In this document: positions 71 through 37,668 of the stretch, one piece after another
How the letters are laid out: the number at the start of each line of letters is the position of its first letter
Position numbering within the stretch: the first letter of the stretch is position 1
IMG/VR virus record: IMGVR_UViG_3300047494_000119
Location: 1 to 49,111 of that record
Strand: one strand, 5' to 3'
DNA: 49,111 nt
DNA from: a virus
Position numbers and translations under genes: made by a program
The notes under the pieces: model-generated
What the model was told of the DNA's origin: nothing
The model's database searches: none
What the model saw: the letters and a program-made list of their open reading frames with translations, nothing else

Positions 71-2497
<2,427 letters not shown>

Positions 2498-2633
2498 CTG
2501 AGACTTCCTTTCAGGACAGCCGAACGGCCGCTGCCCGATCGCGGCACAGCAAGCCCTTCATAGCGGGCATCCCCGCACACCCATGATATCGGCGCGGCCA
2601 ATGCCCTCGCCAAGATGCAGCGGTGGCAGGGGC

Positions 2634-3890
2634 TCAGGCGCTTTCCTCAACCCGCTCCTTGCCATACAGGAACAGCGGTGCGGCGCGGGCCTCGGCAACC
2701 TCGCGGTTGATCACCACTTCCTCCACCCCATCCAGGCCAGGCAGGTCGAACATGGTGGTCAGCAAAATAGACTCCATGATCGAGCGCAGCCCACGCGCCC
2801 CGGTCTTGCGCGCCACCGCGCGCACGGCCACCGATTTTAGCGCATCCTCGGTAAACGTCAGCTTGACGCCTTCCATCTCGAACAGCCGCTGATACTGCTT
2901 CAGCAGCGCGTTCTTCGGCTTGGTCAAAATTTCGATCAGCGCGCTCTCGTCCAGGTCCTCCAGCGTCGCCACCACCGGCAGGCGCCCGATGAACTCCGGG
3001 ATCAGCCCGAACCGCAGCAAATCCTCCGGCTCCACCTCGCGCAGAATGGCGCCCGTCCGCCGCTCGTCCGGCCCGCGCACGTCCGATCCGAACCCGATCC
3101 CAGACCCCTTGCCGCGCGCCCCGATGATCTTCTCCAGCCCCGCGAACGCGCCGCCGCAGATGAACAGGATATTGGTCGTATCCACCTGCAGGAACTCCTG
3201 CTGCGGATGCTTGCGCCCCCCTTGCGGCGGCACCGAGGCCACGGTGCCCTCCATGATCTTCAGCAGCGCCTGCTGCACACCCTCGCCCGACACATCCCGC
3301 GTGATCGACGGATTGTCCGATTTGCGGCTGATCTTGTCGACCTCGTCGATATACACGATGCCGCGCTGCGCCCGCTCCACGTTATAGTCGGCCGCCTGCA
3401 GCAGCTTGAGGATGATGTTCTCCACATCCTCGCCCACATACCCTGCCTCGGTCAGCGTGGTCGCATCCGCCATGGTGAACGGCACGTCCAGGATGCGGGC
3501 CAGGGTCTGGGCCAGCAGCGTCTTGCCCGACCCCGTCGGCCCCACCAGCATGATGTTCGACTTGGCGATTTCGACGTCGTTGTTCTTCTGGCCGTGCGCC
3601 AACCGCTTGTAATGGTTATGCACCGCCACGCTGAGCACCTTCTTCGCGTGCTCCTGGCCGATCACATAGTCATTCAGAACCTTGCAGATTTCCTTCGGCG
3701 TCGGCACCCCGTCGCGTGCCTTCACCAGATGCGTCTTGTGCTCCTCACGGATGATATCCATGCAAAGCTCGACGCACTCGTCGCAGATGAACACCGTCGG
3801 CCCGGCGATCAGCTTGCGCACCTCGTGCTGCGATTTGCCGCAGAACGAGCAGTACAAGGTGTTCTTGGTGTCTTCCTTACTCGGCGGCAT
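2634..3890 (-). CDS. clpX: ClpX, ATPase subunit of ClpXP protease
   Basis: AAA+ unfoldase that recognises tagged substrates and feeds them to ClpP. The N-terminal zinc-binding domain has Cys14, Cys17, Cys36 and Cys39. Walker A GPTGSGKT is at 117-124, pore-loop GYVG at about 150-153 and Walker B VYIDEVDK near 179-186. The length (418 aa) is normal. A GTG two codons upstream is in frame, but AGGAG sits directly against it and is well spaced for the ATG at 3890, so I chose the ATG. It is preceded by clpP on the same strand with a gap of about 150 bp. Confidence 0.98.
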
Positions 3891-28286: not shown

Positions 28287-29879
28287 CTAATGCGGCCGCA
28301 GCTCGTCCAGCAACGCCGCCTGGCCCACCAGCTCGGCCATCGCCATGCCCTGCTGCATGGCCTTCGCGAATGCCGACGGATCCAGCTGCAGCTCCGACAG
28401 CCGATGCGCCAGGTCGTGCAGGCTGTCGGCCTGGTCGAACACCGCGCGCACCTGTTCCGTCATGCCGGCGAGCGCGCTTTGCGCATCGGCCGCCAGATTG
28501 TCGGTCAGCCGCTCCACCACCTCGGGCGGGATTTCGCCGGTCTGGCGGGTCAGCAGCCGCGTCAGCAGCTTCCGGCTATTCTGCTCGGGCACCGGCGCCT
28601 CGATCACCTTGGGCGGCGCCACGGGCGGCGCTGGGGGCGGCATCAGCGTCTCCTCGCCGTCATCCGCCGGCGTCAATTGCAGCCGGCTCATCACCTCGTC
28701 CACGCGCGGCCGCAAGCCCAGCGGCACCATGTTCACGATGCCGGCGATCACATCGTTCAGCGGCACCTGGTCCTGCCGGCCGATCCGCAGCACCGGATAG
28801 CGCTCCTGCGGCCCGAAGGTCAGCGCGATCATGGGCTGCACGATCTGCCGCGTGATGCTGGTGGCCAGCAGCCCGGCGTCGAACTTCTCCACGTCGTCTT
28901 CGATCTGCCGGTGCTCGCGCCCCACCGCGTGGCCACCGGCGATCGCCTCGGTGCCCGCCGTGCTGCCCAGCACCAGCTTGGAAACCTCCCGGTTCAGCCA
29001 GTCCGCCCGCTTCAAATACAGCTCGCTGCCGGCGTTGCGCTCGCTGTCTTTGACGAACTCGATTTCCATGGATTTCGGAATGATCGCGCCCACGTCGCCG
29101 GCGATCGTGCTCACCGCGCGCCACAGCACATTGCGGTCGGTATCCGATGCCTCTGGCCCGTAGCGGCCAACCCGGATCGGGAAGCCGTAAGCCTGGCAGA
29201 ATACCGCCCAGTCCTTCACGTTGAACGCCGAATACATCCACAGGAACGCCACCTGGCGCGTCAGCCCCCCGCGCACGATGTTGCCGGATTTGCTGCGATG
29301 CGGGTGCACCAAAAATTTCAGCGGCGCCAGATCCACGAAGCCCGCGCCGGTGCGCAGCCAGATCGTGCGGCCGTCCTTCCAGGAAATCTCGAAAAACCGC
29401 TGCGGCCGATATTCAATGCGGCTGGGCGCGCAATAGCCGGGCCGCTGCTCCCACAGGATCTCCAGCGCGGAAAATCCTTTGCCCACCGCATCCATGATGT
29501 CGAACATGGCATTCGCCAGCACGTCGCTATCGATCCAGTCGCGCACGAAATCCGCGTGGGTATCGTATTCACCGCCGCCGCGTGCGGCCTCGATCGTGAT
29601 CGGCAGTTGGCTTACCTGGCGTTTGCGCTTCGCCAGCACGGCGCCGTAGTGGCTGAACAGCTCCTCGATCTCCTCGGCCAGGATGAACCATTCCTGGCTG
29701 CTGCCGTCGTCGGCCGCGCGCACGATGGATCCCAACTGGCCGGGATCCATGCCGAACGCCATGTGCCCGGCAAACGGCGGCCGGCTGGCGATCGCGCTGG
29801 GCGGGCTGATCTCCTCGCGCATCTGCGCGATCACGGCCGGCGGTACCGGCTGCCCGAACTGATCCAGCAGCTGGCGCAT
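28287..29879 (-). CDS. Portal protein (Mu gp29-like, DUF935)
   Basis: 530 aa from the ATG at 29879; the longer in-frame extension runs into the terminase gene and is not conserved in character. DUF935 signals are GMDPGQLGSIVRAADDG, DAVGKGFSALEILWEQR, ISWKDGRTIWLRTGAGFVDL, and KRADWLNREVSKLVLGSTAG. The portal ring is the vertex through which DNA enters. It starts 22 bp after the terminase stop. Confidence 0.94.
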   Translation of the reverse strand: MRQLLDQFGQPVPPAVIAQMREEISPPSAIASRPPFAGHMAFGMDPGQLGSIVRAADDGSSQEWFILAEEIEELFSHYGAVLAKRKRQVSQLPITIEAARGGGEYDTHADFVRDWIDSDVLANAMFDIMDAVGKGFSALEILWEQRPGYCAPSRIEYRPQRFFEISWKDGRTIWLRTGAGFVDLAPLKFLVHPHRSKSGNIVRGGLTRQVAFLWMYSAFNVKDWAVFCQAYGFPIRVGRYGPEASDTDRNVLWRAVSTIAGDVGAIIPKSMEIEFVKDSERNAGSELYLKRADWLNREVSKLVLGSTAGTEAIAGGHAVGREHRQIEDDVEKFDAGLLATSITRQIVQPMIALTFGPQERYPVLRIGRQDQVPLNDVIAGIVNMVPLGLRPRVDEVMSRLQLTPADDGEETLMPPPAPPVAPPKVIEAPVPEQNSRKLLTRLLTRQTGEIPPEVVERLTDNLAADAQSALAGMTEQVRAVFDQADSLHDLAHRLSELQLDPSAFAKAMQQGMAMAELVGQAALLDELRPH

Positions 29880-29901: not shown

Positions 29902-31344
29902 TTACCGGCCAAACGCGCCTCCTCTGAAATCCGGCAGGATCGATCGGGCCGGGGTGCGCCGGTCCTCCTCTGCCGCGCGCGACCGCTCGTTCCACCGCCG
30001 GCCGCCCGCGCGCGCCACCCCGGCGAAATCATCCGCCGCTTTCAGCGGTGCCGCGCGGTATTCATAGCTGTCGCGGCCTTGACCGGCCGCGTTCAATGCC
30101 AGAAACAGCGCCCAGGCGCGATCGGCATGGCTGTCGCCTGCCCCGCTATCGTCATCGGCGACGAAGCGTGGAACCCCCGTGGGCCCCACCACCCGCTTCA
30201 ACAGATGCAGATCGTGCCGCAGTTTCGCGTCGCCCAGCGGAATGCGCAGGGTTCGATCCTCGAACGCCTCCTTGGCGCGCGTCGCCATCACCAGCTTGTT
30301 CGGCCCGGTGAACAGCACGCCCTCCACGCGGGTTTCGCCGTGCAGCCGCTGCATGTCCTGCACCGGCTTTTCGCCCATGCCGGTCTGATCCATGCACGCC
30401 CGCGCAATCCGATAGGTGCGCATCAGCCGGTCGAACTCCGCATCGTGCTCGGCAAAGCTCACCCGCCGCAGCACCACCACCTCGCGCGTCCACAGCACAT
30501 CGCCCACCTGCTCCAGCACCCACGCCACCCACAAATCGTGGCGCGCGGCGATATCGTTGCCCAGATAGCAGTGGCCGCCCTGATAGCCGCGCGGATCGCC
30601 GGCGCCGGCGTCTTCCACGCCGCTGATCAAATCGTAGCTCAGCCAGGCGCTGGCCTCGTCCAGCCATTGCAGCTCGAATTCCTGTGCCCACAGATCCTCG
30701 TCGGCCAGGCCCGCGCGCAGTTCGTCGATATCGCGCGGCAGCCCCTCGGCCACCGCCTGGTGGATATCCACGGTGTGGCGGCTCCAGATATCGTCCGCCG
30801 CCGTCATCAGCTCATAGAATTTGTTGGCTTTCCCATTGGGGGTGCTGGTGACGATGATGCGAAACCCGGCCGAGATCACCGGGAACAGCGCCCCCCAGAT
30901 CGCCCGACTGTCGCGATGGAACGCGAATTCGTCCAGCAGCACATTGGCCGAAAATCCGCGCGCGGTATCGGCATTGGCCGGCAGCGCGGTCACCCGCGAT
31001 CCGCCGGGAAACACCACCTCCAGCGCCTTATAGGTCACGTCGTCGGCGGCGAACTCGTATTCGATCTGCTCGATCGCCGCGCCATAGGCCCGGCAATGCG
31101 TCTTCAGCCCCTCGATCGCCTCCTTGGCCTGGCGCTCCCCGCGGGAAAGGATCACCCAGCGCGTGCGCCCGCCGCGCGCCTCGGCGGCGAAGCAGTCATC
31201 GGCGATATCCAGCGTGCTGGTGAACGTCTTGCCGGTCTGGCGCGCGAACATCCCGATCTTGAACCGCGACTTGTCCGCCAGCCACCGCTTCTGGTAGCCG
31301 CACAGATGGATGGCGGGGGCCGCTGAGAGCGTGTTGGACGTCAT
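29902..31344 (-). CDS. Terminase large subunit (Mu gp28-like)
   Basis: 480 aa packaging motor. The Walker A-like ARQTGKT is at 34-40 and Walker B VLLDE at 135-139, then ITSTPNG-like VTSTPNGKANKFYEL (motif III). The nuclease half shows GNDIAARHDLWV and the final DDDSGAGDSHADRAWALFLAL, with acidic residues for metal binding. The ATG lies within a perfect 8-bp stem-loop (31335-31358), and a 22-bp GC palindrome is just upstream. Confidence 0.95.
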   Translation of the reverse strand: MTSNTLSAAPAIHLCGYQKRWLADKSRFKIGMFARQTGKTFTSTLDIADDCFAAEARGGRTRWVILSRGERQAKEAIEGLKTHCRAYGAAIEQIEYEFAADDVTYKALEVVFPGGSRVTALPANADTARGFSANVLLDEFAFHRDSRAIWGALFPVISAGFRIIVTSTPNGKANKFYELMTAADDIWSRHTVDIHQAVAEGLPRDIDELRAGLADEDLWAQEFELQWLDEASAWLSYDLISGVEDAGAGDPRGYQGGHCYLGNDIAARHDLWVAWVLEQVGDVLWTREVVVLRRVSFAEHDAEFDRLMRTYRIARACMDQTGMGEKPVQDMQRLHGETRVEGVLFTGPNKLVMATRAKEAFEDRTLRIPLGDAKLRHDLHLLKRVVGPTGVPRFVADDDSGAGDSHADRAWALFLALNAAGQGRDSYEYRAAPLKAADDFAGVARAGGRRWNERSRAAEEDRRTPARSILPDFRGGAFGR

Positions 31345-32465: not shown

Positions 32466-32765
32466 TCAAGAGGGCGATTTTGCGGACTCCAGACCGCCCT
32501 GCCGGGGCTTCCTCCCAGCCCCATCATGCCGCTCGGCCGTCCGCCGCCGCGACAATCCAGGCTTGGCGCGCGCGAAATCCACGGCTTCACGGCACTCACG
32601 CAACTGGCCGAGAAACACCTCGAATTCGTCCATCTGCGCGGAACTGATCTTATCATGATTGGCCAACAGATATCGTCCAACACTCTCAATCTTCTCGGCG
32701 AAGATGCTCGGCAGGCAACCAGACGCAAACAGCGAAACCTGGATATTGATCTTTTGATCGCCCAT
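32466..32765 (-). CDS. Hypothetical protein after gp27 homologue
   Basis: 99 aa; ATG at 32765 overlaps the previous stop (TGATG). The N-terminal part (KINIQVSLFASGCLPSIFAEK) looks folded and the C-terminal part is basic (LSRRRTAERHDGAGRKPRQGG). No family recognised. It is probably part of the packaging block, next to the small terminase-like gene. Confidence 0.6.
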   Translation of the reverse strand: MGDQKINIQVSLFASGCLPSIFAEKIESVGRYLLANHDKISSAQMDEFEVFLGQLRECREAVDFARAKPGLSRRRTAERHDGAGRKPRQGGLESAKSPS

Positions 32766-33361
32766 CAACTCGCAATCCCATATATCTCTTGCCGCACCCG
32801 GCGCAGCGTGTCCACATCGAAGCCGCGTTGTGTGCCCGCATTACCATCCTTGGTCGCCGCGCGCTCCATCGCATCCAGTTTCTTCTGCTGCTCGGCTTCA
32901 ATTTCGCGCTTCACCCGGATCACCAGATCGGTATTGCTCTTGGATGCCCGCGCCAGGTGATCCATCGCCTTGGCGATCGCCTCGATGCCCTTCGGGTTGC
33001 CTGCCAGCGCCGCGCGGCCGCCCTCGTCGATCCCATCCATCTCGCCTTCGGCGTGGGCCATGAACAGCTCCAGGATGGTGCCGTTCATCAGCTCGATATT
33101 CATCTGCGCGGCTTCGCTCACCTTCGCGTCGCCCACGGTGCGGCCGAGCTGCTCGGCCATCAGCCGGGCCATGCGCATGCGCTCGCCGATTTTATCCATG
33201 CCCTTGATGTGCCGCCCGAGTGCGGATCGGCTCGGCGCCCGGTCATACAGCTCCACCAAATGCTCGCGGATTTGGTCGATCGTCCACCCGTTCTGCCGCA
33301 GCTTGCCGATCGTGCTGCGGATTTCCTCGGGCAGCTGATCGATCGAGCTCGGCCGCGTCAT
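32765..33361 (-). CDS. Mu gp27-like protein (DUF3486), probable small terminase
   Basis: 198 aa. The N-terminal SSIDQLPEEIRSTIGKLRQNGWTIDQIREHL followed by PSRSALGRHIKGM is the DUF3486 helix-turn-helix signature. Helical, acidic C-terminal part. In Mu the equivalent gene precedes the large terminase and binds DNA for packaging. The start overlaps the gp26 stop by one base. Confidence 0.92.
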   Translation of the reverse strand: MTRPSSIDQLPEEIRSTIGKLRQNGWTIDQIREHLVELYDRAPSRSALGRHIKGMDKIGERMRMARLMAEQLGRTVGDAKVSEAAQMNIELMNGTILELFMAHAEGEMDGIDEGGRAALAGNPKGIEAIAKAMDHLARASKSNTDLVIRVKREIEAEQQKKLDAMERAATKDGNAGTQRGFDVDTLRRVRQEIYGIAS

Positions 33362-33663
33362 CAGCCCAGCTCGCGATCCGCAACGCCCGTGTGCTGCCGC
33401 CCGCGCGCCACGGCGGATCCCGCATCGGTGAGCGTGGCGATCCAGATATCGTCGCCGTCATCGGCGAGCTTATCGATGCGCACCAGGCCGTGCACCTCCA
33501 GATAGCTCATATCCGCGCGCACCAGCGCCCGATCGGCCACGTCGATCTTGCGCTCGATCACAGCGCGCAGCGCGGCGTCGTTGGCGCGATTGCCGGGCGC
33601 CACATGCAGCACCTCCAGCACCTTGCGCCGCCGGGCCTCCGCCAGCAGCTGGCTATAGCTCAT
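33361..33663 (-). CDS. Mu gp26-like protein, winged-helix type
   Basis: 100 aa, ATGA overlap with gp25. RRRKVLEVLHVAPGNRANDAALRAVIE, then DMSYLEVHGLVRI and IWIATLTDAGSAVARGR give a winged-helix-like pattern, as in the gp26-type protein found before gp27 in Mu-like phages. Role in virion assembly or packaging unknown. Confidence 0.8.
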   Translation of the reverse strand: MSYSQLLAEARRRKVLEVLHVAPGNRANDAALRAVIERKIDVADRALVRADMSYLEVHGLVRIDKLADDGDDIWIATLTDAGSAVARGRQHTGVADRELG

Positions 33664-34058
33664 CGGTCTTTGTCCTGCAGCTGCGCGCGCGTCAGCAGTT
33701 GAAGCTGGGTGAAGGTACGCTCGCCGCTTTCCACCAGGCCGCGCACCGAGGCGCTCAGACCGGCGATATTGGTGCTCAGCTCGCCCACCTTGTCCTCGGT
33801 GCGCCGAACATCCTCGCGCGTCGGCAGCGTCAGGAACTTCTGCTCCAGATTGCTCAGCCGGTGCACCATGTCGCGATGATCCCTGTGCAGGCCCGAGATC
33901 TGACCCACGTTTTCGTTGTGCAGCTGCATCACCTTGTCGCGGGTGAAAAAGTCACCGCCCAATTTGGCGCGCAGGCTGAAATACAGCAGCGTGCCGACAA
34001 AGGCGGCCACCGCGGTGAACGCGGCCCAGTCCTCCCAGCTTTGCGGGATCCAGCTCAT
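33660..34058 (-). CDS. Mu gp25-like membrane protein (DUF2730)
   Basis: 132 aa from the ATG at 34058, which follows GGAGG by 4 nt. An ATG at 34073 overlapping the previous stop (ATGA) is the alternative and adds five residues. An N-terminal membrane span (AAFTAVAAFVGTLLYFSL) is followed by a long heptad coiled coil to the end. This fits the DUF2730 family next to the lysis genes of Mu-like phages. Confidence 0.82.
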   Translation of the reverse strand: MSWIPQSWEDWAAFTAVAAFVGTLLYFSLRAKLGGDFFTRDKVMQLHNENVGQISGLHRDHRDMVHRLSNLEQKFLTLPTREDVRRTEDKVGELSTNIAGLSASVRGLVESGERTFTQLQLLTRAQLQDKDR

Positions 34059-34069
34059 CGTTCCTCCAT

Positions 34070-34276
34070 TCATCGGCACAGCCGTTCCGTCGCTTCCTGG
34101 CACATGAAGCAGAGGCAACAGCCCGGCAGTGCGATGCGGCGACGTTCGTCAATCTCCCGCCCGCAGCGCAGGCAATCGGTTCCGGACTGCGTCAGCGGCG
34201 CATGCCGCTGCAGCAGGCTCAGAACACCCTCGCGCAGCGCCTCTTCGGCCTCCTGCGCCTTGTCCACCACGTCCAT
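34070..34276 (-). CDS. DksA/TraR-type C4 zinc-finger protein
   Basis: 68 aa. Cys35-x2-Cys38 (CLRCGREI) and Cys56-x2-Cys59 (CFMCQEAT) form the zinc finger of the DksA/TraR family, with a short N-terminal helix. In Mu-like phages a gene of this type lies in the lysis block. By family it may act on RNA polymerase in the secondary channel. Confidence 0.87.
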   Translation of the reverse strand: MDVVDKAQEAEEALREGVLSLLQRHAPLTQSGTDCLRCGREIDERRRIALPGCCLCFMCQEATERLCR

Positions 34277-34299
34277 GCGCTCGGCCGTTCACACGCCGC

Positions 34300-34959
34300 T
34301 CAGGAGGCGGTAGCGGGCGCTGCAGCCGGCGTGGCGGCCGGCACCGCCGTCGGCAGCGTGGCCACGATCACCGCCAGCGCACCCACATCGGCGGTCAGCT
34401 TTGCAAAGAAGCTGCTGGTGGCCGCGTTCGCGGTAATCGCCACCTGCAAGGCGGCGAGATCGGTCGGGATCACCGCCTCCAAACGCTGAATTTCACTCAC
34501 CGTCGCCGGCTGGCTGCACACCTTGGTCACCCCCGGCGTGCCGCACGTCGGCAGCGCGATATAGGCGTTCCCTAGCGCTGTGGAGATCGTATAGCCGGCC
34601 TCCACCGCATTCAGCTGATCCTGCGGCGTGGTGCCTGCGCACCCCGACAGGCCGCCGCCCAGCAGGCAGAACGCCAGCACGATGCCCAGCGTCTTGCTCA
34701 CCGGCGCCGTCACGCCGGCCGCAGGGCTCTTGGCCGGCAGGCTCAACGAAACTGGCTGCGTGGTCAGCTTGCGCAGCACGAGGTTCATCAACCCGATCCC
34801 GGCCATCACCAGCTCGGCCTGGGTTTGAGCATCCAGGATGAAGTTGTGCCCGGCCAACCAAACGCCCGCCGGCGTCACGATCACGTTGGCCCAGAACGTC
34901 TTCGACAACAGAAAGCTCTTGGCCTTCGTCTCGATCACCGTCTCGATCACATCAGACAC
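34300..34959 (-). CDS. Holin-like N-terminus fused to a lipoprotein-like C-terminus
   Basis: 219 aa. Residues 1-65 look like a small phage holin: FLLSKTFWANVIVTPAGVW and a second hydrophobic stretch AELVMAGIGLMNLVL. Residues 88-107 are a second signal-like segment, KTLGIVLAFCLLGGGLSGC, with a lipobox LSGC ending at Cys107. Residues 108-219 resemble periplasmic phage lipoproteins of unknown role, possibly spanin-like. The two parts are usually separate proteins, so this is a fusion or an overlapping lysis arrangement with internal initiation; no Met lies right before the second segment. Confidence 0.78.
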   Translation of the reverse strand: MSDVIETVIETKAKSFLLSKTFWANVIVTPAGVWLAGHNFILDAQTQAELVMAGIGLMNLVLRKLTTQPVSLSLPAKSPAAGVTAPVSKTLGIVLAFCLLGGGLSGCAGTTPQDQLNAVEAGYTISTALGNAYIALPTCGTPGVTKVCSQPATVSEIQRLEAVIPTDLAALQVAITANAATSSFFAKLTADVGALAVIVATLPTAVPAATPAAAPATAS

Positions 34960-34974
34960 AGGCGTCTCCTCGGG

Positions 34975-35910
34975 TTAAAGGCAGTTGTCGTCTTCGCGGC
35001 GCGAACGCAGGTAAATGTCCCACTCGCGCTCCAGCTCCGGCTTGTTGCCGGCGAATTCCAACACGCCGAAGCTGTTGCGCTTCAAATCCGTGTCGGGATC
35101 GAACCCGTGGCGGATGAACATGTCCCAGCGCGAAAGATAGCCGCGCTTGTCTTTCGATCCGTGCCAGCGATGCTCGATCATGCCTGGCAGCGCGCCGATG
35201 CGCCCGTTCACAAAGGCCTTCGCACGCGCACCCCAGCGCAGCTCCTGGCGGGAATAGCTGTCGTCGATCCCGCCGGGCAGGCTCACATCCGCGCGGCCCA
35301 CGAACCCCAGCGCCATATGATGATCGCCCGAGCCCATGCCGCCGAACTCGAACAGCCCGCCCGCCCGGTCCAGCAGCTCGCGCTTGCATGCCCAAAAATA
35401 TCCGCTGTGCGGATAGTCATAGGCACCGCCGTTATGCTTCCAGGGCTTCGGCCCGATCGGCACCAGCGGCGCCCCCTTCATGTATTGCGCGCAGAACCCC
35501 TGATACACCGCCAGCAACTGATCCTGCGGCCCCAGATCAAGCGCGGTGCTCCAGGTCTGCATCACGTGGTAATGCTGCAGATACTCCACCGTCTCGCGCG
35601 CCCAGTCGGGCTGGCGGTGAAACACATCGGCATCGCCCCAGGCGATGAACTCGGCCTGCGGCAGCCGCTTGATGCCCTCGTTCAGGCCGCATTCCTTGCT
35701 CCACGCCCAGCTATCGGCGCGCAGACCCAGATGGTTCACATGCGGCAGATCGCAGCGAAACTCGCTTTTGCCGTAGGCGATTTCCACCACGGTCAGCTGG
35801 GCGCCGCTGTCCAGGATGTGCTGCGTCCAATCCACGAAATGCCGGTGCGGCTGCTGCCAGCGCACCGGATCGAAGCGCACGGTCACCACATGCAGATCGG
35901 ATGCTTTCAC
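34975..35910 (-). CDS. Glycosyltransferase (GT-A type) in the late operon
   Basis: 311 aa from a GTG at 35910 that overlaps the lysis-gene stop (GTGA); the upstream in-frame extension is a shadow. DAD at 93-95 (FIAWGDADVF) is the metal/nucleotide-sugar binding motif. GGAYDYPHSGYFWACKRELLDRAGG and FGGMGSGDHHMAL resemble the acceptor and catalytic segments of galactosyltransferase-type enzymes. No signal peptide. Lying between the lysis and holin-like genes it would be made late; it may modify virion proteins, DNA or host surface. The substrate is not predictable. Confidence 0.8.
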   Translation of the reverse strand: MKASDLHVVTVRFDPVRWQQPHRHFVDWTQHILDSGAQLTVVEIAYGKSEFRCDLPHVNHLGLRADSWAWSKECGLNEGIKRLPQAEFIAWGDADVFHRQPDWARETVEYLQHYHVMQTWSTALDLGPQDQLLAVYQGFCAQYMKGAPLVPIGPKPWKHNGGAYDYPHSGYFWACKRELLDRAGGLFEFGGMGSGDHHMALGFVGRADVSLPGGIDDSYSRQELRWGARAKAFVNGRIGALPGMIEHRWHGSKDKRGYLSRWDMFIRHGFDPDTDLKRNSFGVLEFAGNKPELEREWDIYLRSRREDDNCL

Positions 35911-36416
35911 GCCGAGAGTTCCCCATCGATGTCGGGTGGCGCGCCGATCCGGCGCTCGAAATTGTCCACGAACTCGGCAACCGTGCCCGCGCCGTATTCG
36001 GTGTTGTAGTATTGCTTCCAGTAGGCGCCCAGCGCCGGCACGTCGTGCGCCGCCGGCAACGCTTCCTCCACCAGCCAATACTTCAGCCGGCACAATGCAG
36101 CGGCATAAACCATGTTGGTGGCGATCTGCTTGATCGGATCGAGTGCGGGGATCAGCAGCCGCTGCATCGTGACCCAGCGCCACGGTGACCGCTGCTTCAC
36201 GCGCGCCAGCACGTCGATCGCGGTGGCCTCTTCGATTTCCCAATAGCTCAGCGCCGGCCCGCTCGGAAACTGCGCGATATAGGCGCCGCCGCTTTCCTGT
36301 GCGGCCGTGCCCAACAGCAAATTCCGGGGCGTCGCGCCATCCAGAGCAAGCAGTCCGCACGCCGGAATAATGGCACGGCTGCGCAGCTGGTCCAGGATCG
36401 GGGTCTTGATCGCCAT
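35907..36416 (-). CDS. Probable endolysin/lysozyme-like lysis protein
   Basis: 169 aa, first gene after the first late promoter element, the position of the Mu lysis gene. LLLGTAAQESGGAYIAQFPSGPALSYWEIEEAT has a Glu (41) placed like the catalytic Glu of lytic transglycosylase-type enzymes, and the remainder is helical. There is no signal peptide, so a holin would be needed. The enzyme assignment rests on the motif and place, not on a full family match. Confidence 0.65.
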   Translation of the reverse strand: MAIKTPILDQLRSRAIIPACGLLALDGATPRNLLLGTAAQESGGAYIAQFPSGPALSYWEIEEATAIDVLARVKQRSPWRWVTMQRLLIPALDPIKQIATNMVYAAALCRLKYWLVEEALPAAHDVPALGAYWKQYYNTEYGAGTVAEFVDNFERRIGAPPDIDGELSA

Positions 36417-36443
36417 AAACCCTGTATGGCGGCTGCAACCCGG

Positions 36444-36470
36444 CGGTGATTACCCTAGCAACTGCACACC
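36444..36470 (-). promoter_or_regulatory. Late promoter element, copy 1 (Plys-like), before lysis gene
   Basis: On the minus strand: GTGCAGTTGCTAGGGTAAT, a more diverged form of the elements at 26133 and 13930 with the same TTGCTAGGGTAA/CTGCTAGGGTAA half. Core 36456-36467. The ATG of the lysis gene follows 33 nt after GGGTAA; Mor/C gene stops just upstream at 36481. Confidence 0.65.
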
Positions 36471-36480
36471 GCAGCGCCGC

Positions 36481-36870
36481 CTACAGCGGCAGCCGCATCT
36501 GCTGGGTTTGCGCTGCCTGGCTGCCGCGCGCGGCGCGCTCGCGCGCCAAACGTTTCGTGCGCCACACGGTGTCTATCCCCACGTTCAGGCCGCGCGCAAT
36601 GGCGTCCGCCGAAAGCCCGCGGCTGAGATAGATCAGCACCCGCCAGCGCTTCGCCAGCGGGATCGTCAGCTTCGTGCCACCATACACCCGGCTCAGCGCG
36701 GCCGCCGCCTCGTCGCCCAGCAGGTCGATCATGCCGGCCGAGGGCTGCATGCCCACATTGATCCGCGTCCCGCCATACGCCTCCACCAGCGCCAGCAACC
36801 CCCCATCGCCCACCACTTCGGCAAGCTCCGCGAATTCCGCCGGCGCGGGGATGGCAGCGGCGTCGTTCAC
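36481..36870 (-). CDS. mor: Mor/C-family transcription activator
   Basis: 129 aa from a GTG at 36870 that overlaps the preceding stop (GTGA). The Mor-family pattern is IDLLGDEAAAALSRVYGGTKLTIP, followed by a helix-turn-helix at about 86-110 (LSADAIARGLNVGIDTVWRTKR). In Mu, Mor activates the middle promoter and its paralogue C the late ones. Only one such protein is found here. It is encoded directly before the first late promoter element, so it may do both jobs. Confidence 0.9.
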   Translation of the reverse strand: MNDAAAIPAPAEFAELAEVVGDGGLLALVEAYGGTRINVGMQPSAGMIDLLGDEAAAALSRVYGGTKLTIPLAKRWRVLIYLSRGLSADAIARGLNVGIDTVWRTKRLARERAARGSQAAQTQQMRLPL

Positions 36871-37133
36871 CGGCCGCCGCACTCCAGCCGCCGCAGCGTC
36901 ATCGCGCCCAGCGCCGTCAGGCGAACGCACGCGAAGGTGCCCATCCGGCATTCGAACGCGGCCGGCACCTGATCCACCACGCCCAATTTGATCATGCGCG
37001 CGATCATCGCGTCTTCCGCGACCGTCGCCGGCGTCAGATACGCCGCCCGGATCGGCCGATAGATCGTCAGCGGCAGACGCTTCAAAAATCTTAGCTCGGC
37101 AACAGCGTCGGGAGCAGCCGGCGCGCGCGTCAT
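36867..37133 (-). CDS. Small hypothetical protein (88 aa)
   Basis: Coupled by 4-base overlaps to both neighbours. Contains LRFLKRLPLTIYRPIRAAYL and MIARMIKLGVVDQVPA ... LTALGAMTLRRL, a pattern like a small winged-helix domain. Unrecognised; probably early or middle phage regulation. Confidence 0.65.
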   Translation of the reverse strand: MTRAPAAPDAVAELRFLKRLPLTIYRPIRAAYLTPATVAEDAMIARMIKLGVVDQVPAAFECRMGTFACVRLTALGAMTLRRLECGGR

Positions 37134-37393
37134 CGCTGGTCTTCCGCCGCCATCAGCTCGGCAAAATGCGCCGCCAGCTCGCCGGCGGCGATCAGCAGCT
37201 CGGCCGGGCCCACCAGTTGGCCACGCCTGGCGCCGAACTCGCGCGCGTGGATCTTGGTCGCCGACAGGAAAAGGCTCGCGCTGGCGCTGTTGCGCTCGAA
37301 GCTGTCGTGCGCTGCGGTCAGCCGCACATGCAGCAGCATATCGCCGGCCGCCCGCGTATCGGACAGGATTTGCAGCGCCAGGTCGCTGGTCAT
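37130..37393 (-). CDS. Small hypothetical protein (87 aa)
   Basis: Helical, with LALQILSDTRAAGDML and the Ala/Glu-rich ELLIAAGELAAHFAELMAAED at the end. ATGA overlaps on both sides show it belongs to the same polycistron as GemA and Mor. Unrecognised. Confidence 0.65.
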   Translation of the reverse strand: MTSDLALQILSDTRAAGDMLLHVRLTAAHDSFERNSASASLFLSATKIHAREFGARRGQLVGPAELLIAAGELAAHFAELMAAEDQR

Positions 37394-37668
37394 GTCCGCG
37401 CCCCGAACGTCGTGCGCCCCAGCTGCGTCAGCGCCAGGTCGCAGAAATATCCCGCGCCGCCTTTGCTCGCCGCGTCCGGCTTCATGCTGATCAGGCCCTG
37501 GCGTTGCAGCCGGGTCGCCTGTGCGATCACCACCGCCTCGCTCGATGTCACCCGCAAAGTCTTGCCGTTTGCCACGAAGATCTTGCGCGGCAGCGTCGCC
37601 ACAAACTCCTGATCGGTCAGGCCGCCAAAGATCGCGGCCGGGCGGCGCCGCGCGCTGATCTTAACCAT
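37390..37668 (-). CDS. Small hypothetical protein (92 aa), winged-helix-like
   Basis: Overlaps the GemA gene by 8 bases. SSEAVVIAQATRLQRQGLISM followed by LTQLGRTTF gives a short winged-helix-like pattern, similar in outline to the 88-aa neighbour and the gp26-like protein. No family recognised. Confidence 0.65.
   Translation of the reverse strand: MVKISARRRPAAIFGGLTDQEFVATLPRKIFVANGKTLRVTSSEAVVIAQATRLQRQGLISMKPDAASKGGAGYFCDLALTQLGRTTFGART

What the first reader, a model, noticed from the sequence alone, without database searches (positions are those of the whole stretch)
34975..35910. Glycosyltransferase inside the late lysis block
A GT-A type enzyme with a DAD motif sits between the lysis and holin-like genes and starts by GTGA coupling. 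Phage glycosyltransferases usually change host surface in lysogens or modify DNA early; expression with lysis genes suggests modification of virions or of late products such as the fibre.
Basis: partly seen in the sequence, partly recalled or inferred. Interest (0 to 1): 0.55.

Follow-up and report, generated by a model that had tools for sequence, protein, structure and literature searches.

The report
Travelling late-gene phage sugar-transfer enzyme
A Mu-like bacterial virus carries, between two probable cell-bursting genes, a sugar-transferring enzyme of an unnamed family that keeps reappearing inside the late gene blocks of otherwise unrelated viruses; it probably decorates something made at the end of infection, perhaps the virus particle itself, but its target is not known.

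Summary
34975-35910 (minus strand) encodes a 311-aa protein whose GTG start overlaps the stop of a lysozyme-like gene (GTGA) and which ends 15 nt before a holin-like gene of a Mu-like phage. The window protein matches no Pfam, PHROG or NCBIfam model, but relatives and a confident AlphaFold model (pLDDT 95.4) show a GT-A glycosyltransferase; both Asp of DxD are invariant in the 135 full-length rows aligned. The family is accessory and mobile. It lies in late modules of several unrelated phages: neck/tail-sheath, TerL-like/portal of Mu-like phages, near P22-like portals, GTA-like tail genes, beside endolysins. In one contractile-phage lineage it is under purifying selection but was probably lost about three times. 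In the window's own slot, a close relative (88-92% DNA identity on both sides) carries a GT only 43% identical, from another clade. GtrA was found in 0 of 36 GT-bearing records; thymidylate-synthase-type and TET/JBP genes in one record each, neither in the window. Most likely acceptor: virion or other late phage proteins, as in mycobacteriophages; host-envelope precursors are a close rival. Acceptor and timing are inferred, not shown.

The parts
34975..35910 (-). GT-A glycosyltransferase, 311 aa, GTG start, unnamed family
   Evidence: ORF; fold; invariant residues
35626..35634 (-). DxD motif (codons 93-95, DAD) of the GT
   Evidence: position counted from the start at 35910; motif
35907..36416 (-). 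lysozyme-like (lytic transglycosylase superfamily-like) protein, phrog_3108, overlaps the GT start by 4 nt
34300..34959 (-). holin-like membrane protein with a lipobox-like LSGC
   Evidence: sequence only; no family match
36481..36951 (-). late transcriptional activator of C/Mor type, upstream of the lysis genes
   Evidence: phrog_836 E 3e-19; Pfam Mor only E 0.21
34070..34276 (-). DksA-like zinc-finger protein downstream in the operon
   Evidence: phrog_54
33660..34118 (-). DUF2730-like protein downstream in the operon
   Evidence: Pfam below cut-off, E 0.0014; phrog_736
32765..33361 (-). Mu Gp27 / small terminase
29902..31344 (-). large terminase (Mu gp28-like position)
   Evidence: PF17289 E 1e-20; PDB match to T4 gp17
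28287..29879 (-). Mu-type portal protein
   Evidence: PF06074 E 7e-78

Best explanation
Shown: the gene encodes an intact member of a conserved, unnamed GT-A type glycosyltransferase family; it lies, without a recognised promoter of its own, between a lysozyme-like and a holin-like gene of a Mu-like phage; and the family is an exchangeable accessory gene found in late modules of unrelated phages, mainly of Alphaproteobacteria. Inferred: in the window phage the C-type activator turns on the lysis operon late; the enzyme is made in the cytosol with virion and lysis proteins, takes a sugar from a host nucleotide-sugar and adds it to a phage product made at that time, most likely a capsid, tail or fibre protein, so that released particles carry a glycan that changes adsorption, stability or recognition. 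Different alleles would add different sugars or use different acceptors.
For: GT-A fold and invariant E43, K72, E73, D93, D95, D196, H250, R304, E306. Profile hit to ceramide glucosyltransferase, E 9e-4; Glycos_transf_2 in 14 of 62 relatives at E <= 0.1, best 2e-6. dN/dS 0.022-0.054 in the 5 pairs that fell in the chosen identity range. Of 83 GT-bearing viral loci (81 contigs) in 27 flank contexts, 64 of the 73 with both neighbours have both on the GT strand. 12 of 27 contexts lie in head, tail or lysis surroundings: 11 by an annotated or modelled immediate neighbour, the contractile one by its module. The same slot holds alleles of different clades. GtrA in 0 of 36 records; PF00303 in 1 and PF12851 in 1 other of 36, neither the window. 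Precedent: cluster O mycobacteriophages have GT genes between portal and protease, found in infected cells, proposed by the authors to modify the capsid (PMC4351075, passages); glycans on capsid and tail tube of mycobacteriophages, as cited in PMC12619734 (passage).
Against: No acceptor is identified. In seven head/tail-module proteins of the contractile lineage no Ser/Thr column was lost in two or more of the three GT-less lineages (18-32 GT-positive rows per protein; fibres not covered). The gene moves between phages with unrelated virions, which does not fit an enzyme tuned to one structural protein. 4 of 27 contexts have other neighbours (ribonucleotide reductase; nicotinamide phosphoribosyltransferase; a family of unknown function with a weaker regulator match; an opposite-strand DNA-binding gene) and 11 are unannotated. 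The window protein has Asp at position 14 where the other 134 of 135 rows have Asn, so its own activity cannot be taken for granted. Timing of expression was not measured.
Confidence: 0.4

Rival explanations
1. The enzyme acts on a host envelope glycan or lipid-linked precursor at the inner membrane late in infection, so that progeny do not bind debris or infected siblings, or (if also expressed in lysogens) as surface conversion.
For: The family is shared by phages with unrelated virions in one host group: one Acetobacteraceae MAG holds it in two different prophage-type loci (L089 contractile, L090 Mu-like; binning errors not excluded). Allele replacement in a conserved slot resembles type-specific gtr genes (PMC3688519, passages). 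Structural relatives include surface-polysaccharide enzymes WrtF and TarP.
Against: No GtrA in 36 records (control rings in 7 of 14 genomes). Short or overlapping junctions inside head, tail and lysis operons are unlike conversion genes with their own promoter; no sigma-70-like site in 33600-37500 (shuffles average 0.5, so little power).
Confidence: 0.32
2. The enzyme glycosylates phage DNA or nucleotides before packaging, a late DNA modification in the manner of Mu Mom (Mom recalled, not searched).
For: Late placement is compatible with modification before packaging; one structural match, AvpGT with Ara-A (9jn3, Z 14.5), binds a nucleoside.
Against: No thymidylate-synthase/hydroxymethylase-type gene and no TET/JBP in the window; one record each among 36 (L081, 177 kb; L051, 167 kb) (the PF12851 control rings in 0 of 14, so that control shows no sensitivity). 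Other base-modification routes were not searched.
Confidence: 0.1
3. The gene is cargo without benefit to the phage, or an inactive allele, carried by the mobility of late regions.
For: Probably lost about three times in one lineage with no visible change in neighbouring proteins; Asp14 in the window copy.
Against: dN/dS 0.022-0.054 (5 pairs); as conserved as the capsid protein where kept (median identity 79% against 81%, 21 loci); 15 of the tabulated positions invariant in 135 of 135 rows.
Confidence: 0.1

Closest known systems
GT-A fold, GT2-like glycosyltransferases (SpsA, TarP, WrtF, chondroitin polymerase, GalNAc-T2)
   Same: GT-A fold over about residues 1-275; DxD motif
   Different: 9-16% identity in the listed VIA-align matches; no Pfam GT model matches the window protein; own invariant C-terminal R-x-E-D (R304, E306, D307)
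Glycosyltransferases of mycobacteriophages that modify virions
   Same: Small GT genes inside the structural operon (PMC4351075, passages)
   Different: Homology to those proteins not tested; there several GTs and a methyltransferase lie together, here a single gene; no glycan shown here
gtrABC serotype-conversion cassettes
   Same: Phage-borne GT with alleles that are exchanged (PMC3688519, passages)
   Different: No GtrA in 36 records; a single gene inside a late operon
Xanthomonas phage XaC1 hypothetical protein WNA15848.1
   Same: Full-length relative, 34% identity
   Different: Large phage (349 kb); the neighbours are nearly all hypothetical proteins

Membership tests
GT-A fold glycosyltransferases | GT-A fold | tested here: met
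   Model pLDDT 95.4; 50 of 50 listed VIA-align entries are glycosyltransferases; Foldseek also lists sugar nucleotidyltransferases lower down
GT-A fold glycosyltransferases | DxD metal/nucleotide-sugar motif | tested here: met
   D93 and D95 in 135 of 135 rows; role recalled
GT-A fold glycosyltransferases | Catalytic base and third metal ligand (candidates D196, H250) | tested here: inconclusive
   Invariant in 135 of 135; roles not tested
Pfam Glycos_transf_2 (PF00535) | Score over the curated cut-off | tested here: not met
   Window protein: 0 Pfam families up to E 1; relatives: 14 of 62 match at E <= 0.1
gtrABC serotype-conversion cassette | GtrA flippase in the same phage | tested here: not met
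   0 of 36 records, window included; most records may be fragments
Hydroxymethyl-base DNA glycosylation (T4 type) | Hydroxymethylase or TET/JBP gene in the phage | tested here: not met
   None in the window; 1 of 36 records each; PF12851 control uninformative
Phage virion glycosylation systems | GT gene inside the structural or late operon | tested here: met
   12 of 27 viral contexts
Phage virion glycosylation systems | GT-dependent glycan on virion proteins | not testable with these tools
   Needs mass spectrometry; an indirect column test was negative

The most novel reading that the evidence does not exclude
An unnamed GT-A family is a shared, exchangeable virion-glycosylation gene pool of alphaproteobacterial phages: one late cassette used by Mu-like, contractile, P22-like and GTA-like phages, in which allele replacement at a fixed slot switches the glycan on the particle much as serotype genes switch a cell surface.
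Probability: 0.25. Interest if true: 0.75.

Novelty: new variant of a known kind. Interest (0 to 1): 0.52.

Why it matters
The virion-glycosylation precedent that I found is in mycobacteriophages. A late, mobile, allele-exchanged GT family in phages of Gram-negative environmental bacteria would extend it to a new host group and offers natural GT-plus/GT-minus relatives (L026 against L170, a supported pair; L089 against L171 and L173, a weaker one) with which acceptor and benefit could be tested. Even if the acceptor is a host glycan, it would be a late-operon route to surface change unlike the gtr cassettes.

Tried and rejected
Family libraries: no match for the window protein in Pfam, PHROGs or NCBIfam; phmmer against the PDB empty. 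NCBIfam on 62 relatives gave only weak, unrelated hits; PHROGs on 62 gave phrog_1721 (galactosyl transferase) in 2, best E 0.0045.

GC content as a mark of foreign DNA: the gene (63.7%, GC3 82.1) resembles its neighbours; the case for transfer rests on the tree and the allele replacement.

Allele swapping everywhere: rejected for the contractile lineage, where GT identity follows its neighbours (r 0.74 with the capsid protein, 0.84 and 0.86 with the two flanking genes; 21 loci, 210 pairs).

Acceptor site lost with the gene: no candidate. The five columns changed in two or more GT-less lineages were A, G (capsid), V and T-to-S (sheath) and V (c7).

Terminator-like site inside the GT gene (35415-35399): 1 found, shuffles average 2.0; discarded.

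Partner gene c12 of bacterial relatives (19 members): one member scanned, no PHROG or Pfam match; not followed further.

Literature: the listings showed no paper on this family; only titles and abstract starts were seen there. Passages were read in PMC12619734, PMC4351075 and PMC3688519. Freeman et al. 2023 is not held and is known here only through its citation in PMC12619734.

Full report
1. What is there. The window is a 49,111-base virus record. Its minus strand carries Mu-type transposase A and B, GemA and Gp27, a C/Mor-type late activator (phrog_836), a Mu-type portal (PF06074), a large terminase (PF17289; T4 gp17 in the PDB), a major head protein and a contractile tail sheath: a Mu-like contractile phage. 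The finding's ORF is real: 311 aa, GTG start overlapping the TGA of the upstream gene as GTGA, 15 nt to the next gene. A codon-based gene caller written here also calls it, but its first training set contained this family's genes, so that is weak support.

2. The lysis block. The upstream protein matches phrog_3108 (unknown function). Glu41 is invariant in it and eight relatives. Its AlphaFold model (pLDDT 85.6) resembles muramidases, lytic transglycosylases and chitinases in VIA-align (best Z 10.9, 2.8 A over 123 residues); Foldseek's best matches are of the same kinds but none is below E 0.001, and the tool warns that Z under about 13 may be chance for helical folds. 'Lysozyme-like' is likely, not proven. 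The downstream 219-aa protein is holin-like by its hydrophobic stretches only, and also has a lipobox-like LSGC.

3. The enzyme. The window protein itself hits no Pfam, PHROG, NCBIfam or PDB sequence. tblastn finds one phage (Xanthomonas phage XaC1, 34%) and four plasmids (29-34%). Pattern scans give 149 relatives in viral contigs, of which the tool kept 80, and 66 in bacterial genomes; the 69 not kept were not examined. A profile of 62 relatives reaches ceramide glucosyltransferase in the PDB (E 9e-4, profile positions 168-247), and 14 of 62 match Glycos_transf_2 at E <= 0.1. The AlphaFold model from 59 sequences (pLDDT 95.4, pTM 0.92) is of GT-A type: the 50 entries listed by VIA-align are all glycosyltransferases (Z 12.8-15.5); Foldseek lists sugar nucleotidyltransferases as well, from rank 29. 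In the viral structure library two proteins stand far above the rest, A0A6G6XPM6 (E 6e-33, TM 0.91) and a Yasminevirus protein (E 3e-28, TM 0.86). Among the positions tabulated for 135 full-length rows, E43, K72, E73, D93, D95, W103, G170, G193, D196, H250, G251, R261, R304, E306 and D307 are invariant. The 135 rows are what remained of 158 hits plus L153 after dropping 3 duplicates and 21 rows by coverage or length. One oddity: position 14 is Asn in 134 rows; the exception, Asp, is the window protein.

4. Where the family lives. 83 viral loci were examined (81 contigs, as L002/L012 and L003/L015 are the same contigs; L067-L069 and L071-L075 have identical proteins). By shared flanks they fall into 27 contexts; in 64 of the 73 loci with both neighbours, both lie on the GT strand; the median gap to same-strand neighbours is 59.5 nt upstream and 20 nt downstream. 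12 of 27 contexts are late surroundings. The largest (39 loci) lies between two families of unknown function (phrog_14605, phrog_13532) in a module with terminase, portal, major head protein and tail sheath. Eleven have an annotated or modelled immediate neighbour: Mu-type portal downstream in L042 and L057 (also L090 from a genome; the gene before the GT, or one further upstream, clusters by BLAST with the window's terminase, though PF17289 matches none of these three); GTA-like tail genes (L052-L055, L065, L076, L079; and separately L077); endolysin-type genes (L048/L050/L063; L062/L084; L085/L086); the lysozyme-like gene (window); head-tail adaptor (L047), tail protein (L080), hub/tail-lysozyme (L058) and, weakly, tail fibre (L064). 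4 of 27 have other neighbours: ribonucleotide reductase (L067-L069), nicotinamide phosphoribosyltransferase (L051), phrog_731 of unknown function with a weaker regulator match (L049), and an opposite-strand DNA-binding protein (L071-L075). 11 of 27 are unannotated, most with one flank scanned; L059 and L061 were not scanned. One representative per gene cluster was scanned. In 3 of 66 bacterial-genome loci (L105, L108, L109) a P22-like portal lies two genes upstream.

5. Mobility. In a tree of 135 proteins (quick method, SH-aLRT only) 104 rows, with nearly all viral loci, are separated by a long branch (100*) from 31 rows that are mostly bacterial chromosomal or plasmid copies. The window protein falls in a set of 36 rows whose other 35 are of the contractile context (96*), although its phage is Mu-like. 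The three copies in a lysis-gene context of window type (window, L153, L091) need 3 changes, at least 2 forced by starred branches; so do the three Mu TerL-like/portal copies.

6. Allele replacement. Contig IMGVR_UViG_3300047175_000270 (L153/L163/L248) is a close relative of the window phage here: C activator 95%, holin-like 96%, DksA-like 100%, DUF2730-like 96%, portal 97% and MuF 99% amino-acid identity. In the same slot its lysozyme-like protein is 73% and its GT 43% identical. blastn blocks on either side are 91.9% (2,213 nt) and 88.0% (1,468 nt) identical, with none across most of the GT. In 90-base steps identity is 88-100% over the C gene, 54-82% over the lysozyme gene, 48-72% over the GT and 78-100% over the holin gene. 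The terminase is exchanged too (29%), so replacement is not unique to the GT.

7. Gain, loss and selection in one lineage. Of 74 loci newly fetched with the downstream neighbour's protein, 4 hold a GT, all of them re-fetched GT-positive contigs; some stretches are too short to show the slot. In L170, L171, L173 and L175 the two flanking genes are 27-80 nt apart with no GT between. A capsid-protein tree of 70 rows (32 GT-positive, 38 GT-negative) puts all positives and these four negatives in one 36-row clade (98/93); the label needs 4 changes, at least 3 forced. Together with the near-monophyly of this context in the GT tree I read one gain and about three losses; repeated gains are not excluded. 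Of 26 records without a GT at the slot, searched whole, 1 (150 kb) has a GT elsewhere. Where kept, the gene is constrained: dN/dS 0.022-0.054 in the 5 pairs within the chosen identity range; median GT identity 79% against 81% for the capsid protein (21 loci). In 299 genomes of the family of the Acetobacter oeni genome, 21 have a match.

8. What it modifies. Serotype cassettes: GtrA in 0 of 36 GT-bearing records. Base hypermodification: PF00303 in 1 of 36 (L081, 177 kb), PF12851 in 1 of 36 (L051, 167 kb), none in the window (the PF12851 control rings in 0 of 14). Most records may be fragments. Virion proteins: late placement and the mycobacteriophage precedent speak for it (passages); the column test speaks weakly against it, or leaves fibres. 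Host envelope: exchange among phages of one host group and type-like alleles speak for it; embedding in late operons and lack of GtrA speak against the classical version. Peptidoglycan hydrolase genes are neighbours in four of the 12 late contexts (window, c29, c64, L085/L086); lysis regions often take up extra genes (recalled), so I draw nothing from it. I give virion or late protein 0.40, host envelope 0.32, DNA 0.10, cargo 0.10.

9. Novelty. Chemistry and fold are known. The family is not named in the libraries searched, and its habit, a single exchangeable GT that repeatedly settles in late operons of unrelated phages, was not seen in the papers listed. I file it as a new variant of a known kind.

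Noticed in passing
window 35869-35871 (codon 14 of the GT): The window protein has Asp at position 14, where the other 134 of 135 rows have Asn in an NP motif; it may change donor use or activity.
   Followed up: no
window 29902-31344 against L248 8001-9599: The large terminase of the close relative is only 29% identical while portal and MuF are 97-99% identical: a second gene replacement near the GT.
   Followed up: partly
window 34300-34959: The holin-like protein has a further hydrophobic stretch ending in LSGC, like a lipoprotein signal; it may join a holin and an outer-spanin-like lipoprotein (sequence reading only).
   Followed up: no
Possibly remnants of an element that integrates at a tRNA end.
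   Followed up: partly
L117-L139 in part, L005, L006: Relatives in Burkholderiales and Pseudomonas are followed by a conserved gene of about 300 aa (cluster of 19; no Pfam or PHROG match in the one scanned; the one read in full has a Gly/Ser/Asp-rich tail), a possible acceptor or partner.
   Followed up: partly
L126 and L145: Two family copies lie next to each other in Streptomyces palmae (L126) and in a Roseibium record (L145, with a third copy further off).
   Followed up: no
window 71-3890: Two neighbouring ATPase-like genes (808 and 418 aa; best matches phrog_15585 and phrog_4339, unknown function) at the left end of the record.
   Followed up: no
L051 and L081 records (167 and 177 kb): Among 36 GT-bearing records, one has a TET/JBP gene and another a thymidylate-synthase-type gene, far from the GT.
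   Followed up: no
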